This document shows positions 44,020 to 49,006 of a stretch of DNA of 64,000 bases, piece after piece. Location of the stretch: assembly GCF_026340565.1 (NCBI RefSeq), contig NZ_JAPEPB010000001.1, positions 6,918,001 to 6,982,000 of the forward strand, read 5' to 3'. Position 1 is the first letter of the stretch. The number at the start of each line of letters is the position of its first letter. Source of the DNA: Kitasatospora sp. NBC_01287. Its GTDB lineage: Bacteria; Actinomycetota; Actinomycetes; Streptomycetales; Streptomycetaceae. Under the pieces are notes generated by a model. It had not been told where the DNA came from. It searched no databases and saw only the letters and a list, made by a program, of their open reading frames with translations. The position numbers were made by a program, and so were the translations under genes.

Positions 44020-44379
44020 TCACGCCTCGGCGCGAGTAGCTTCCAGATGCCACATAGTCCGTCCACGCCCTCGTAGTTTGCCGACAGTGACCGCGATCCG
44101 GCGGGCCGGGAAGGAGCGCTGCCGCATGTCCGGGGTCAGCGGCAGGCCGCGACGGCGTCGGTGTAGAGCCCGGTGGTGAGATCGCCCTCTTCTGCCATTG
44201 GCTGTCTGGACGGTACGGATCCGCAGCTCCCGGTCGCCCTGGTCGAGCAAGCCGGCCGGAGTGTCGTAGTAGGTGTCCTGGTAGACCTCTGGGCGCCCGG
44301 GAGCGTACGCCTCCTCCAGACGTTCCGTCACCGCCTCGGGGTCACGCACGATCGCCTTCAGCTCGGCTTCGACAGCCAA
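44020..44379 (-). pseudogene. CYTH / class IV adenylate cyclase-like gene, truncated
   Basis: The first 63 residues are a normal CYTH-domain start: MAVEAELKAIVRDPEAVTER, then YQDTYYDTPAGLLDQGDREL and IRTVQ. After that the frame becomes Arg-rich and unrelated, and the family's lysine-rich strand (TYKGP) and the rest of the tunnel domain are missing. A frameshift and deletion are the likely cause. Intact members bind triphosphates or make cAMP. The fragment lies 9 bp from another broken gene. Confidence 0.65.
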
Positions 44380-45208: not shown

Positions 45209-45409
45209 ATGAAGCTCAAGTTCCTCGGTACCACCTCCGACGATGGCAAGTGCCCGACCCTGTACGAGACGCCGACCGGAGACATCGTCGTTCAGGGGTA
45301 CACGCTCAGTGACCCGGAAGCTCTTGCGCAACTGCGGGATGTACTGCCAGGTGAGAGCTTCGTGGTGGTGCCCCGCGAGCTGTTGGCCAAGTTCGCCCCC
45401 AAGGAGTAG
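45209..45409 (+). CDS. 66-aa small protein preceding DUF6879
   Basis: Starts MKLKFLGTTSDDGKCPTLYE after an AGGGAGAG site; a compact predicted beta-rich protein ending ELLAKFAPKE. It is followed after 7 bp by the DUF6879 gene, and such small proteins often accompany DUF6879/XRE pairs in streptomycetes. Function unknown. Confidence 0.75.
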   Translation: MKLKFLGTTSDDGKCPTLYETPTGDIVVQGYTLSDPEALAQLRDVLPGESFVVVPRELLAKFAPKE

Positions 45410-45416
45410 AGACCGC

Positions 45417-45956
45417 GTGACCGAGTTCATCACCGACGAGCAGTTCGACCACCTCTTCGGAGACGGCTTCCAGCACACCGCCTGGCGGCTGGAAAGTCGC
45501 TCCGCCTACGCGTCTGACCTGGCAACTCCCATGTATCAGCGATGGTCGGCCGGAGAGGACCCGCAGGCCGATCAGTACCGCCCGTGGTGCCAGAACATCC
45601 GGACGCAGGTCGCTGCAGGCAAGCGAATCGAGCGCGTGCGGGTCGCGGATTCCCCGCTCACCGCCGGCCAGGCCTTCCTCCTCGCAGTGGGGTGGGCGAA
45701 TGTCGCGGCGGGCGAGGACATCCGCCACCTGGACCGCGCTGTCGCAGCAGAACTCCGCCTCCCGAAAAGGGACTTCTGGTTGTTCGACTCCCGGGTTCTC
45801 ATTGAGATGCACTTCGACTGTGCTGACGAGTACCTCGGGGCTGAGCTGATCGATGACCAGGGCGCAGTTCTGATTGCCTGTCAGATCCGCGACGCTGCTT
45901 GGCACCATGCCGTTGTCCGCGAGGAGTTCGCGAAGAGGGTACCTTCAGCCGTGTGA
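45417..45956 (+). CDS. DUF6879-family protein
   Basis: 179 residues from a GTG start. FQHTAWRLESRSAYASD, RVRVADSPLTAGQAFLLAVGW, GEDIRHLDR and FWLFDSRVLIEMHFD match the DUF6879 group. Its stop overlaps the GTG of the following XRE regulator by 4 bp. The family is tied to Scr1-type XRE proteins in actinomycetes and may be the effector or antidote side of that module; the role is unproven. Confidence 0.83.
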   Translation: MTEFITDEQFDHLFGDGFQHTAWRLESRSAYASDLATPMYQRWSAGEDPQADQYRPWCQNIRTQVAAGKRIERVRVADSPLTAGQAFLLAVGWANVAAGEDIRHLDRAVAAELRLPKRDFWLFDSRVLIEMHFDCADEYLGAELIDDQGAVLIACQIRDAAWHHAVVREEFAKRVPSAV

Positions 45957-46795
45957 GCACCGACTTCCAGCGGGCACGAGAGGCCCTCGGTGCGCGGCTG
46001 CGGCAGCTGCGCGTTGACGCGGGCCTTTCGGGCCGTGCCCTGGCCGCTCTCGCAGGGTGGCCACACTCGAAGATCAGCAAGCTGGAGACCGGACGGCAAA
46101 CGGCGGTGGAGGCGGATCTCACCGCATGGGCCGAGCACACCGGGAACCTGGGCATGGCGGCGTCACTTCACGCCGACCTGCGGGGCCTGGAGACCCAGTA
46201 CCGATCGTGGCGTCGCCGCCTCGCCGCCGGCCATGAGGCAGCGCAGCGGGAAGCCGGCGCCGAGGAGCGCGCCGCGAGGATGGTCCGCGCTTACGAACCG
46301 ACCGTGATCCCAGGCATACTCCAGACGCCGGACTACGCTCGCGCCGTTCTTACGGCTGCGGCAGTGCTGCACCAGTCCCCACGGGACACCGAGGATGCGG
46401 TGCGAGAGCGCGTGCGCCGCCAGGAACTTCTGTACGAGCGTGGTCGATCGTTCCACTTCATCCTCTGGGAGGGTGTACTCCACGCCCAGCCATGTCCCCG
46501 AGAGGTGCTCGCTGCGCAACTGGATCGACTGACTGGCCTGGTGGGCCTGGACACCGTGACGCTCGGAGTCATCCCGTTCTCAGCGGCCCTTCCGCTGACG
46601 CTACGTCATGGATTCTGGATCCACGATGAGGCCTATGTCACCGTTGAGACGATCAACGCGGCGCTGTGGCTGGACACCCGAGCGGACGTTGATCTGTATC
46701 TCCGGGCCTGGTCGATGTATGAGCAGGTCGCAGAGTTCGGCGCTGGCGTCCACCGCTTGATCGGTCGAGCGAGACACGCGTTGGCGGCACTCTGA
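45953..46795 (+). CDS. Scr1-family XRE regulator (DUF5753)
   Basis: 280 residues from the GTG at 45953. N-terminal HTH (LRQLRVDAGLSGRALAALAGWPHSKISKLE), then a DUF5753 domain beginning at about residue 90, with YEPTVIPGILQTPDYARAVL, RQELL, HFILWEGVLH and GVIPFS. The type controls development or antibiotic loci in streptomycetes. It probably regulates the adjacent five-gene set, whose promoter lies 80 bp downstream. Confidence 0.88.
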   Translation: MSTDFQRAREALGARLRQLRVDAGLSGRALAALAGWPHSKISKLETGRQTAVEADLTAWAEHTGNLGMAASLHADLRGLETQYRSWRRRLAAGHEAAQREAGAEERAARMVRAYEPTVIPGILQTPDYARAVLTAAAVLHQSPRDTEDAVRERVRRQELLYERGRSFHFILWEGVLHAQPCPREVLAAQLDRLTGLVGLDTVTLGVIPFSAALPLTLRHGFWIHDEAYVTVETINAALWLDTRADVDLYLRAWSMYEQVAEFGAGVHRLIGRARHALAAL

Positions 46796-46850
46796 GAAGC
46801 CATGCGAAACAGCAGCAGCGCTTCGAGAAGCGCGGAGAAACATCGACGTC

Positions 46851-46875
46851 AGGTGGCGAAGCGGTCACCTAGCGT
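46851..46875 (+). promoter_or_regulatory. Leaderless promoter with operator-like repeat
   Basis: AGGTG-N10-CACCT (46851-46870) abuts and overlaps a TAGCGT -10 hexamer (46870-46875). The ATG of the next gene is seven bases further on, so the transcript is probably leaderless. The repeat is a candidate site for the XRE regulator just upstream. Confidence 0.5.
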
Positions 46876-46882
46876 ATCGACC

Positions 46883-47086
46883 ATGGCAGATCTTGTGGTC
46901 CAGCCGCAGCCCGCCGCCGGGCTGCCGCACGTGGACACAACCCTGAGTTACGCCCAGTTGCACGAGCGCGCATGCGTCGTCTGCGGCTCCTCGGTGCCGC
47001 CGCTGGTATCAGTTGGCCACCGGACGGTCGACGGCCTGACCTGGGCCGTGGCGGCCTGCGCCGCGCATGCCGGGGAGGCCCGCTGA
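46883..47086 (+). CDS. 67-aa zinc-ribbon-like protein
   Basis: C31-x2-C34 and C59-x2-H62 form a possible zinc site; the rest is short and soluble. First gene of a coupled set: its stop overlaps the next ATG (TGATG). No family recognised. It could be a small DNA- or protein-binding partner of the terpene-synthase-like protein. Confidence 0.7.
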   Translation: MADLVVQPQPAAGLPHVDTTLSYAQLHERACVVCGSSVPPLVSVGHRTVDGLTWAVAACAAHAGEAR

Positions 47087-48015
47087 TGGCCGCCGTGACC
47101 GATCGGCGGCACACCGATCTCTACGTCAGTGCCGCCACGTTCCTCTCCGAGCACGGCCTGCACCCCGACCCGGCGGCCTACCTCGCGCACGGCTACGTCG
47201 ACCTCTGTCTGTCCGCGTGGCCCGGCTCGTCCGGTGCGCGGCTCGACCTGGCGACGCGTTGGGCGGTGTGGACGTGGCTGGCTGACGATGTCCTCGACGG
47301 TGAGTTGCGTGATGCCGAGCCGGCCACGGTGCCGGTGTTCGTCCACGCGCTCATCGTTGCCCTGAACGGGAAGCGGCAGGACGAGGGCCCGCACGGCGCC
47401 CGGCCGGTGGTGCGGGCCCTGTGCGCGTTGTCGCGGGAGACGCAGGCCTCGATGCCCGAGGCGTGGTGGCGCCGGTACCGGGAGCAGGTGATCGACTGGA
47501 TCGACGCTGCGGCGGCCAAGTTGGTGCGTTTCGTGCAGCCGGCGCGGGTGCCTTCGCTGAGCCAGTACCTGGCGCTGCGGCCCGCTGACGGTGGCATGCT
47601 GCTGGCCGCGATGTGGTGCGAGGTGGCAGAGGAGTGCGTCACGCCGCAGTGGACGGCACCTGTGGTGCGGCTGCTGCTCGACGCGTTCTCGACGGTCGGT
47701 TACCTGGCCAACGATCTCGCCGCCGCTGTCGCTGTCGCTGTAGACGGTGACCGTTTCGGTGTGGTCGACGCGTTGGAGGTGGCCGAGGAGCTGACGCGGG
47801 CGCAGGCGCAGGAGCAGGCGCGGGAGTGGCTCGCTGCCGAGGAGCGCCGCTTCCAGGTCATCTGCCGCGCGGTGCGCACCGACCCCGCCCTGGACGAGGC
47901 CACCCGGCAACTCGCCCGCTCCCTGGACCGGTTCCAGTGGGCGCTGACGGCCTGGACCGCCACCAGCTCCAGGTGCCGGCCCCCGGCCGGCGTCACCGAG
48001 GCAGTGCCCCGGTGA
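47086..48015 (+). CDS. Class I terpene-synthase-fold protein with altered second metal motif
   Basis: 309 residues, all alpha-helical. The aspartate-rich motif DDVLD (67-71) sits in WTWLADDVLDGEL, as in bacterial sesquiterpene or isoprenoid synthases. At the position of the NSE/DTE triad the protein reads ND-LAAAVAV (209-217), so the expected Ser and Glu/Asp ligands are Ala and Val. It may bind a prenyl diphosphate without standard cyclisation, or act as a prenyl-binding or regulatory protein. No prenyltransferase or P450 is nearby. Coupled on both sides by overlapping stop/start codons. Confidence 0.75.
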   Translation: MAAVTDRRHTDLYVSAATFLSEHGLHPDPAAYLAHGYVDLCLSAWPGSSGARLDLATRWAVWTWLADDVLDGELRDAEPATVPVFVHALIVALNGKRQDEGPHGARPVVRALCALSRETQASMPEAWWRRYREQVIDWIDAAAAKLVRFVQPARVPSLSQYLALRPADGGMLLAAMWCEVAEECVTPQWTAPVVRLLLDAFSTVGYLANDLAAAVAVAVDGDRFGVVDALEVAEELTRAQAQEQAREWLAAEERRFQVICRAVRTDPALDEATRQLARSLDRFQWALTAWTATSSRCRPPAGVTEAVPR

Positions 48016-48275
48016 CGCCGTACCAGGAGCGGGTGCTCGCCGAGCTGCGCGGGCTCGGCCAACTGCTACAGGACGCCGCGGTGCGGGGCGCCGGGGCCCC
48101 GGTGCTGGACCCGCTCCTCGCGAGCATGCGCGAGCTGGACGACGGGATCCGCACGCACCTGGCGGCCGAACTCGGCGCTCACCAGCCGCCGGTGCCGCCC
48201 ACACCGACACCGCTGCGGGCCCGGAGGCGGGCCGAGAGGTGCCGGCTCCAGAACCCGACAACCCAGGAGAGCTGA
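48012..48275 (+). CDS. 87-aa helical protein
   Basis: GTG start overlapping the previous stop by 4 bp (GTGA). Helical N-terminal half (YQERVLAELRGLGQLLQDA), then a Pro/Thr and Arg-rich tail. No known family. Probably an accessory subunit of the cluster. Confidence 0.65.
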   Translation: MTPYQERVLAELRGLGQLLQDAAVRGAGAPVLDPLLASMRELDDGIRTHLAAELGAHQPPVPPTPTPLRARRRAERCRLQNPTTQES

Positions 48276-48779
48276 ATGAGTACCGCAACGCTCTGGAAGG
48301 ACCCCGAGAGCCTCGTCCCGCCACAGGTGTTCGCCGCGGTCGTCGCCACGGTCCGCGACAACAACCCGGAGATGGACGAGCCGCTCGTGCGGCGCATCGT
48401 CCGCGAGGCGCTGAAGTTCGTCGCCACCTGCGGCCGGTTCAGAGACCGTGGCATGGCCCCGTCGCGTGTGGTGGACGAGGGCTGGCACGCCCTGATCCTC
48501 CACACCAAGGCGTACGAGGAGCTGTGCGCGCAGCTCGACGGCCCGGTGCACCACTATCCTGAGCGTCCGGACCCGACCCGGTACAACGGCAGTGTGGTGA
48601 TCTTCACGACCAGCATGATGCAGGAGGCCGGATACCTGCCGGACTACCGGTTGTGGGGCGACCCGCGGTCCGGGGAGATCGTGGTAGCCGCGAGCTGCAC
48701 GCACTCCCCGCCGGACTGCCAGGTGTCGTGTATGAACAAGCCCGGCGGGAGCCAGGCAGTGACAGGAGCAGGCACATGA
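48276..48779 (+). CDS. 167-aa protein with WH...HH motif (glycine-rich-domain-like)
   Basis: Starts directly after the previous stop. DEGWHALILHTKAYEELC (67-84) and VHHYPE (91-96) resemble the conserved motif of 'glycine-rich domain-containing' proteins, which have suspected metal-site histidines. The C-terminus has three cysteines (C141, C148, C152) in SCTHSPPDCQVSC, which could hold metal or form disulfides. Function unknown. Its stop overlaps the next ATG by 4 bp. Confidence 0.7.
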   Translation: MSTATLWKDPESLVPPQVFAAVVATVRDNNPEMDEPLVRRIVREALKFVATCGRFRDRGMAPSRVVDEGWHALILHTKAYEELCAQLDGPVHHYPERPDPTRYNGSVVIFTTSMMQEAGYLPDYRLWGDPRSGEIVVAASCTHSPPDCQVSCMNKPGGSQAVTGAGT

Positions 48780-49006
48780 CCGAGACGGGCAGTGCGCCGT
48801 TCCAGGCGCACAAGTGGCTGGAGCACCACGCGGTCGCGATGAACGCGGTCGAGACCGGGCTGATCGCCGTGGACGAGTTGGTCACGGTGCGGGTGCCGAT
48901 CACGGTCACCCGGGTCGGCCCGGATGCTCCTCGCACGGCGGCCCGGGTGCTGATGACCCCCTTCCACCGTCTGCCGGACGGCTGGACGCCGCCAACGCCC
49001 GCCTGA
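48776..49006 (+). CDS. 76-aa small protein closing the cluster
   Basis: ATGA overlap with the preceding gene. Sequence FQAHKWLEHHAVAMNAVETGL, then a beta-rich VTVRVPITVTRVG and a Pro-rich end. No known family. Last gene before a strong bidirectional terminator. Confidence 0.65.
   Translation: MTETGSAPFQAHKWLEHHAVAMNAVETGLIAVDELVTVRVPITVTRVGPDAPRTAARVLMTPFHRLPDGWTPPTPA

What the first reader, a model, noticed from the sequence alone, without database searches (positions are those of the whole stretch)
46883..49006. Five-gene, translationally coupled cassette around a terpene-synthase-fold protein
A leaderless promoter drives a 67-aa zinc-ribbon protein, a divergent class I terpene-synthase-fold protein, an 87-aa helical protein, a WH...HH/Cys-rich protein and a 76-aa protein. 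All neighbours overlap or abut (TGATG, GTGA, TGAATG, ATGA), so they are made in fixed proportion, and four of the five have no known family. There is no prenyltransferase, P450 or other terpene tailoring gene, so this is not an ordinary terpene cluster. An Scr1-type XRE regulator with a DUF6879 partner sits directly upstream.
Basis: partly seen in the sequence, partly recalled or inferred. Interest (0 to 1): 0.72.

Follow-up and report, generated by a model that had tools for sequence, protein, structure and literature searches.

The report
Phage-linked terpene-synthase cassette behind switch genes
A small group of soil bacteria and some of their viruses carry a mobile gene switch whose output looks like an unusual terpene-making enzyme with an altered metal site, suggesting that viruses may use terpene chemistry to change their bacterial host.

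Summary
The five coupled genes are real but are not one system. The core is a short Cys protein plus a divergent class I terpene synthase (TS), sometimes with the 87-aa protein. It occurs 33 times in 8 of 70 genomes of the window's genus (Kitasatospora), 2-6 copies per genome, and in 3 distinct metagenomic phage contigs. GRD167 and the 76-aa protein are a second cargo block, also found without the TS. Only the window has all five.

29 of 33 copies have a regulator-type gene within 2.4 kb upstream, from five families (three with Pfam HTH matches). The TS tree follows genome (10 changes against 20.4 shuffled) and ignores regulator class (16 against 15.2), so regulators and cargo are exchanged. 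In the phage contigs and three prophages the cassette follows the endolysin, a usual place of accessory (moron) genes. The window's regulator is WhiJ-like; direct repeats 10 bp apart precede a leaderless-type promoter, broadly as at the published whiJ9-iosA locus.

Most likely it is an XRE-switched accessory effector locus spread by temperate phages. The TS family keeps DDxxD, the R-D-G triad and RY (the window copy has RC), but nearly all copies lost the Ser and Glu of the NSE metal triad. Product and phenotype are unknown.

The parts
45209..45409 (+). 66-aa partner protein of the regulator module (family 'F6'); not DUF397 by Pfam
   Evidence: present at 9 of 9 XRE-DUF5753 loci (E<1e-25) of the window's own genome, at one of them fused to DUF6879 (fusion read by eye); dN/dS 0.11
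45417..45956 (+). DUF6879 partner protein
   Evidence: PF21806 E 1.3e-51; 9 of 9 own-genome loci
45953..46795 (+). XRE-DUF5753 regulator, WhiJ-like
   Evidence: PF19054 E 1.4e-35, HTH_31 E 5.2e-13; NCBIfam Sco1979-family 100.5 bits, below its 350 cut-off
46794..46841 (+). putative operator: two pairs of direct repeats (GAGAAGC 46794, GCGAAAC 46804, GAGAAGC 46825, GAGAAAC 46835), 10 bp apart within each pair
   Evidence: lag-10 self-similarity over 9 homologous intergenic regions: 65 against 49.5 +/- 2.9 in shuffles, 0 of 500; repeat places read by eye; no binding shown
46870..46875 (+). TAGCGT, -10-like hexamer 7 nt before the ATG (leaderless-type promoter)
   Evidence: TANNNT at this place in 9 of 9 F4-type loci, by eye
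46883..47086 (+). 67-aa short Cys protein (CxxC...CxxH), putative zinc ribbon
   Evidence: related proteins upstream of the TS in 27 of 33 copies, directly abutting in 23; no Pfam match
47086..48015 (+). divergent class I terpene-synthase-fold protein; DDxxD and R-D-G triad kept, NSE triad degenerate, RY changed to RC in this copy
48012..48275 (+). 87-aa helical protein (h87)
   Evidence: found after 11 of 33 TS copies; dN/dS 0.75 against the paralogue
48276..48779 (+). GRD167: separate widespread cargo protein with H71, H92, H93, C141, H143 invariant in 14 sequences
   Evidence: 95 of 200 family genomes at E<1e-6, 14 viral contigs, alignment of 14, no PDB fold match at E<0.001
48776..49006 (+). 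76-aa partner of GRD167
   Evidence: pair recurs at L046 and, without TS, at L138
44389..45082 (-). remnant, in two frames, of another regulator-type gene (family F20); similar DNA stands beside the TS of L053 in another species
   Evidence: F20 HMM hits in two frames; 82.6% identity over 918 bp to the L053 locus; no Pfam match for one frame

Best explanation
This is an accessory effector locus of the WhiJ type, of a kind that temperate actinophages carry between lysis genes and integrase and leave in host chromosomes. Module 1 (66-aa protein, DUF6879, XRE-DUF5753) is the switch. By analogy with WhiJ9/iosA, the XRE protein binds direct repeats and turns on a leaderless transcript that starts at the short Cys protein. 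Module 2 is the output: Cys protein + terpene synthase (+h87), here with a second cargo (GRD167+p76) behind it. The TS most likely still ionises a host prenyl diphosphate (no precursor gene is among the cassette genes) and so makes a terpenoid, or diverts precursor, when the switch is released. The biological effect would be lysogenic conversion: a change of host development, signalling or phage susceptibility. Shown here: gene families, regulator-cargo exchange, phage and prophage location of relatives, repeats in the intergenic region, conserved residues, purifying selection. Inferred: activation by the XRE protein, leaderless start, zinc binding, catalysis, phage origin of the window copy, and the effect on the host.
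For: Switch: XRE-DUF5753 and DUF6879; 9 of 9 own-genome loci of this regulator have the 66-aa + DUF6879 partners, with different genes behind them; direct repeats at lag 10, 0 of 500 shuffles; WhiJ9 binds three direct repeats with a 10-base consensus before leaderless iosA (PMC10294661, sections read). Exchange: a regulator-type gene of five families within 2.4 kb in 29 of 33 copies; TS tree follows genome, not regulator; within-genome DNA homology mostly covers just the TS (+h87). Phage: 4 viral contigs, 3 distinct, with TS between endolysin and integrase, with head, portal or tail genes; phage genes upstream of the TS in G061, G054, G068; GRD167 in 14 viral contigs and phage Kromp. Enzyme: DDxxD, R165-D168-G169, N209, R296 in 32 of 32; TS dN/dS 0.14-0.22 in 4 of 5 pairs; fold.
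Against: The BldB partner of WhiJ loci is DUF397; the 66-aa protein has no DUF397 match. The WhiJ9 repeats have another sequence and lie 113 bp before the start, ours about 40-90 bp. No TS relative in 50,697 isolate phage records. Phage genes were found beside 3 of 33 bacterial copies, plus an endolysin alone at a fourth; not every locus was scanned with a phage library, and the window copy has none. The evidence for G061 rests on an endolysin, one head-region protein and a weak portal match. The NSE triad is degenerate in nearly all copies, and the window copy also has Cys for the Tyr of RY, so catalysis is unproven and this copy may be decaying. F16 has no Pfam match, nor has the window's F20 remnant; F2 matches HTH only weakly. 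One TS pair has dN/dS 0.55. Phage contig L155 has no called Cys protein.
Confidence: 0.6

Rival explanations
1. A plain single-gene terpene pathway: an ordinary terpene synthase with a nearby pathway regulator, duplicated inside a few species.
For: True TS fold and most catalytic residues; single TS genes without prenyltransferase are common in actinobacteria (recalled); paralogues that cluster by genome.
Against: Regulators of five families exchange under it; phage and prophage location of relatives; short Cys protein upstream in 27 of 33; NSE triad degenerate, while the passages read in PMC10509563 list the NSE triad among the conserved motifs of active actinobacterial enzymes.
Confidence: 0.17
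2. A non-catalytic TS-fold protein: the fold is kept to bind a prenyl diphosphate or a partner and works as sensor or inhibitor, not as a synthase.
For: Ser of NSE is Ala in 30 of 32 and N+8 is Glu in only 1 of 32; PMC10509563 reports a TS branch with deviating motifs and low activity, with two inactive members (passages).
Against: DDxxD, R-D-G triad, N209 and R296 are invariant in 32 of 32, hard to explain without diphosphate chemistry.
Confidence: 0.2
3. A toxin-like effector: when induced (for example by a second phage) the TS drains farnesyl diphosphate needed for cell-wall carrier lipid and stops growth, as in abortive infection.
For: Switch architecture, phage carriage of relatives, and effectors of WhiJ/BldB loci (abaA6, iosA) that block sporulation when overexpressed (PMC10294661).
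Against: No match to a known defence effector in PADLOC, only generic HTH hits of the XRE protein; 2-6 copies per genome.
Confidence: 0.12
4. A dedicated five-gene complex.
For: All five genes overlap or abut.
Against: All five occur together in 1 of 33 TS copies; GRD167+p76 occur without TS.
Confidence: 0.04

Closest known systems
WhiJ/BldB/AbaA-type loci of Streptomyces, in particular whiJ9-bldB9-iosA (PMC10294661)
   Same: XRE-type regulator (WhiJ, SCO4543, has DUF5753 according to PMC10364602; so has ours) next to a small effector gene; leaderless effector transcript (ours predicted); direct repeats in the intergenic region; many paralogous loci per genome with varied effectors; an HATPase (AbaA-like) sits in the same slot at L137
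   Different: DUF6879 and a 66-aa protein instead of a DUF397 protein; other repeat sequence and distance; effector is a terpene synthase and lies downstream on the same strand
Class I bacterial terpene synthases (Pfam PF19086; closest folds T-muurolol, pentalenene and germacradienol/geosmin synthases)
   Same: alpha fold (TM 0.84), DDxxD, R-D-G triad, RY in 31 of 32
   Different: about 20-23% identity to these; NSE triad lacks Ser and Glu in nearly all copies; RY is RC in the window copy; regulator-swapped, multicopy, with phage-carried relatives
Morons / lysogenic conversion genes of temperate phages
   Same: cargo with its own regulator between lysis genes and integrase
   Different: cargo is a terpene synthase; most bacterial copies show no prophage around them in the tests made
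XRE-DUF397 pairs Scr1/Scr2 (PMC10364602 passages; PMC6262351 listing only)
   Same: same regulator class (XRE-DUF5753)
   Different: no DUF397 protein found at the window locus

Membership tests
Class I terpene synthase | class I fold / family profile | tested here: met
   PF19086 E 2.8e-20; TM 0.84; profile match to 57 PDB sequences at E<0.001
Class I terpene synthase | aspartate-rich DDxxD | tested here: met
   32 of 32
Class I terpene synthase | NSE metal triad | tested here: not met
   N kept in 32 of 32; Ser in 2 of 32; Glu at N+8 in 1 of 32 (Asp 23)
Class I terpene synthase | diphosphate sensor Arg with linker Asp and Gly (effector triad; recalled) | tested here: met
   R165, D168, G169 in 32 of 32
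Class I terpene synthase | C-terminal RY pair | tested here: inconclusive
   31 of 32 copies met; the window copy has RC
Class I terpene synthase | turnover of a prenyl diphosphate | not testable with these tools
   needs enzyme assay
WhiJ/BldB locus | XRE-DUF5753 regulator | tested here: met
WhiJ/BldB locus | DUF397 (BldB) partner | tested here: not met
   66-aa partner has no Pfam or NCBIfam match; DUF6879 instead
WhiJ/BldB locus | direct repeats between regulator and effector | tested here: met
   by sequence only, over 9 loci; motif and distance differ from WhiJ9
WhiJ/BldB locus | leaderless effector transcript (as iosA) | tested here: inconclusive
   TANNNT 6-7 nt before the ATG in 9 of 9 loci; no transcript data
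WhiJ/BldB locus | effect on development | not testable with these tools
   needs genetics
Phage moron | family occurs in phage genomes among phage genes | tested here: met
   3 distinct viral contigs with endolysin and integrase flanks and head, portal or tail genes
Phage moron | this copy lies in a prophage | tested here: not met
   no non-cassette protein from the held pieces (about half) of three phage contigs matches the window (the window was not scanned with PHROGs); an endolysin lies beside the TS that shares the downstream flank in G059
Known anti-phage defence system | PADLOC model match | tested here: not met
   only generic HTH hits of the XRE protein
Family 2 encapsulin cargo terpene cyclase (NF041168) | curated score | tested here: not met
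   52 bits against cut-off 1200

The most novel reading that the evidence does not exclude
Temperate actinophages carry their own lineage of terpene synthases with a rebuilt metal site as switch-controlled lysogenic-conversion effectors, and the cargo gene is shuffled between unrelated regulator modules, so that each host ends up with several copies answering to different signals. It would be a phage-carried terpene synthase family and a chemical route by which a prophage alters its host or neighbours.
Probability: 0.4. Interest if true: 0.82.

Novelty: new variant of a known kind. Interest (0 to 1): 0.62.

Why it matters
WhiJ/BldB-type loci are numerous in streptomycetes (median 19 bldB paralogues per bldB-containing actinobacterial genome, PMC10294661) and their purpose is unclear. 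Here the effector slot holds an enzyme with a recognisable chemistry, so one locus could be tested end to end: signal, switch, product, phenotype. It also suggests that some such loci are phage accessory modules, and gives a TS family whose altered metal site tests what class I terpene chemistry requires.

Tried and rejected
Rejected: a dedicated five-gene complex. Rejected: DUF397/Scr2 identity of the 66-aa protein (no match); the label 'DUF397like' in my scripts is a misnomer. Rejected: GRD167 as a known domain (0 of 14 members match Pfam, or PHROGs, at E<0.01; no PDB fold at E<0.001); a resemblance to plant glycine-rich-domain proteins is recalled only. Rejected: known defence system. Led nowhere: first genome-contig scan with the single protein (none); TS in isolate phages (none); Cys protein in plasmids (none); tRNA attachment site in the window (none); one F9 regulator as query in 4 genomes at E<1e-25 found only itself; A1 profile outside the genus at E<1e-40 (1 of 345 class genomes, only the own genome; the best 6 first-look candidates per genome were scored). 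Paper searches. Searches found no paper; in the lists (15 of 23 shown; 25 of 31 shown) no title or abstract start describes a phage-carried or XRE-switched terpene synthase. Only an open-access library was searched and the listed papers were not read in full. Read: PMC10294661 abstract, sections 3, 10, 14 and passages; PMC10364602 and PMC10509563 passages only; PMC6262351 search listing only.

Rows dropped: the TS alignment and trees use 29 of 33 bacterial copies (L055, L062, L064 truncated; L057 start unclear) plus 3 phage copies; L156 has the same gene lengths and places as L155 and was left out. The regulator-label count uses 27 rows (L038 and L061 have no regulator within 2.4 kb). The direct-repeat test uses the 9 loci with the F4 regulator; lag 10 was noticed by eye and from the paper before testing, all lags 5-20 were tabulated (lag 10 is highest, 65; next 57 at lag 12), shuffles were run for lags 9, 10, 11, some of the 9 loci are related to each other, and in L006 and L063 lag 10 alone is weak (5 and 6 of 10). 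The HMMs were built from members of the same loci. The gene caller in the scripts is home-made and crude.
Full report
WHAT IS THERE. The 309-aa protein has a true class I terpene-synthase fold: Pfam Terpene_syn_C_2 at E 2.8e-20, an AlphaFold2 model of mean pLDDT 86.4, and best PDB matches to T-muurolol, pentalenene and geosmin synthases at about 20-23% identity and TM up to 0.85. The other four cassette proteins match nothing in Pfam, NCBIfam or PADLOC. A further conserved gene, a 66-aa protein (45209-45409), precedes DUF6879 and the XRE gene.

COPIES AND DISTRIBUTION. The window's genome has three members of this TS family: the window copy, an 87% copy at 8.01 Mb and a 52% copy at 2.85 Mb. 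The fourth hit (29%, E 1.1e-11) is another TS relative. In the genus, 8 of 70 genomes have matches at E<1e-30, in 2-6 copies each, 33 in all, some of them partial. In a sample of the family it is 8 of 394 genomes and 1 of 17 genera. In a class sample, with a profile at E<1e-40, it is 1 of 345, the own genome. In some searches only the best 5-6 candidates per genome were scored. On the linear plasmid NZ_CP108459.1 the TS is annotated 'hypothetical protein'.

MODULES. HMM re-scanning of the 33 loci finds a regulator-type gene of five families within 2.4 kb upstream in 29: XRE-DUF5753 with DUF6879 in 9, XRE-TPR family F2 in 8, F9 in 7, F16 in 3, F20 in 2. Representatives of F4 and F9 have Pfam HTH matches above the curated cut-off, F2 a weak one below it; F16 and F20 are HTH-like by eye only. 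Without such a gene are L038, L055, L064 and L061 (there F2 lies 2.7-4.1 kb away). A short Cys protein lies upstream of the TS in 27 of 33, directly abutting in 23. h87 follows in 11, GRD167+p76 in 2, and all five genes together only in the window. DNA homology between copies of one genome mostly covers only the TS, with or without h87 (for example -43..+1103 for the window and L005, -21..+992 for L043 and L044), while the wider flanks are largely unrelated. Exceptions are L044/L048, alike over 2188 bp including the regulator, several pairs that share the Cys protein too, and scattered upstream pieces. The TS tree follows genome (10 label changes against 20.4 +/- 1.3 in shuffles, 0 of 300 as low) but not regulator class (16 against 15.2, 255 of 300 as low). 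Thus regulator and cargo are exchanged. Whether the within-genome clustering comes from local duplication or gene conversion is not decided. Beside the same downstream flank, agmatine deiminase and urease, G000, G052 and G059 carry TS copies of different clades with different regulators.

THE SLOT ELSEWHERE. The own genome has nine XRE-DUF5753 loci at E<1e-25, all nine with the 66-aa and DUF6879 partners, in one fused by eye. Behind or beside them lie TS (2), a GRD167 relative (1), a PCMT methyltransferase (1), small peptides with a 187-aa protein, or small ORFs. In G052 the same module precedes an HATPase (AbaA-like) on a 72-kb contig (L137), and GRD167+p76 stand without TS beside an F16 regulator and a NUDIX gene (L138). 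GRD167 relatives occur in 95 of 200 family genomes at E<1e-6, 31 plasmid records at E<1e-4, 14 viral contigs and 1 of 50,697 phage records, Kromp. In Kromp, genes 29 and 30 are XRE-DUF5753 and DUF6879.

PHAGE CONNECTION. Four IMG/VR contigs encode TS relatives at 47-54% identity; two share one gene layout, so three are counted as distinct. In each the order is endolysin, a regulator, (Cys protein in L153 and L154) TS, then an integrase and small repressor-like genes (repressors by eye), and the same contigs have head, portal or tail genes. In the bacterial genomes, the 20 kb upstream of the TS hold phage genes in G061 (endolysin, one head-region protein, a weak portal match; other genes by eye), G054 (capsid and ten further proteins) and G068 (a head-tail operon 49-84% identical to the phage of L153). 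In G059, beside the TS that shares the window's downstream flank, a phage-type endolysin (61%) lies 3.2 kb upstream. The window itself holds a remnant of an F20 gene 82.6% identical over 918 bp to the DNA beside the TS of the G061 prophage, but no other phage-like match. No TS relative was found in 50,697 isolate phage records. GRD167 loci in viral contigs also lie near endolysins and integrases: of 10 hand-picked proteins from 7 of the 14 loci, 6 are endolysins and 4 integrases.

SWITCH. Between XRE and the Cys protein, nine homologous loci share TANNNT 6-7 nt before the ATG and self-similarity at a lag of exactly 10 bp (65 against 49.5 +/- 2.9, 0 of 500). In Streptomyces venezuelae WhiJ9, an XRE-type protein, binds three direct repeats with a 10-base consensus, 113 bp upstream of the leaderless iosA start, and is required for iosA activation in the bldB mutant; BldB hetero-oligomerises with BldB9 (PMC10294661, sections 3, 10, 14). 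The same logic is therefore proposed here. It differs in lacking a DUF397 protein and in motif and distance of the repeats.

ENZYME. Over 29 bacterial and 3 phage copies DDxxD, R165, D168, G169, N209 and R296 are invariant; Ser of NSE is Ala in 30 of 32, N+8 is Glu in 1 and Asp in 23, and RY is kept in 31. The window copy has RC, and it carries a 5-residue insertion in the NSE loop (its 87% paralogue 3, L052 4, a few others 1-2). TS pairs show dN/dS 0.14-0.22 in 4 of 5 comparisons and 0.55 in one. In PMC10509563 (passages) a branch of actinobacterial TS with deviating motifs had low activity, and two further members of it were inactive. So the family is kept by selection, but its chemistry may be altered and the window copy may be decaying.

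CONCLUSION. Best reading: an XRE-switched accessory effector locus of phage or island origin whose effector slot holds a divergent terpene synthase. New variant of a known kind; product, signal and phenotype are open.

Noticed in passing
L132:4007-5637, L137:5192-6325: XRE/DUF6879 modules followed by a PCMT-type methyltransferase with small ORFs nearby, reminiscent of RiPP clusters (recalled); PCMT match tested for L132 only, L137 by eye.
   Followed up: partly
L134:5504-6239, L135:2478-3229: 37-38-aa peptides rich in Lys, His, Gly and Pro next to a conserved ~187-aa protein beside XRE/DUF6879 modules; the L135 protein has no Pfam match.
   Followed up: no
window 48276-48779 and L139-L152: GRD167 is a conserved family with invariant His/Cys residues, a confident predicted structure (pLDDT 82.5) and no PDB fold match at E<0.001.
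   Followed up: partly
L134:40-279 and 1638-1877: An identical 79-aa ORF is present twice, about 1.6 kb apart.
   Followed up: no
L165:8740-9964: IspD- and IspF-like genes (by eye) lie about 9-10 kb from the TS at the prophage end in G054; probably host core genes.
   Followed up: no
window 44020-44379 (-): An ORF that looks by eye like a piece of a CYTH (class IV adenylate cyclase) gene; such a gene is also annotated upstream of the TS on NZ_CP108459.1.
   Followed up: no
L107, L108: On Streptomyces linear plasmids a DUF6415 gene and GRD167 follow divergent HTH modules with HD or DUF6879 partners.
   Followed up: partly
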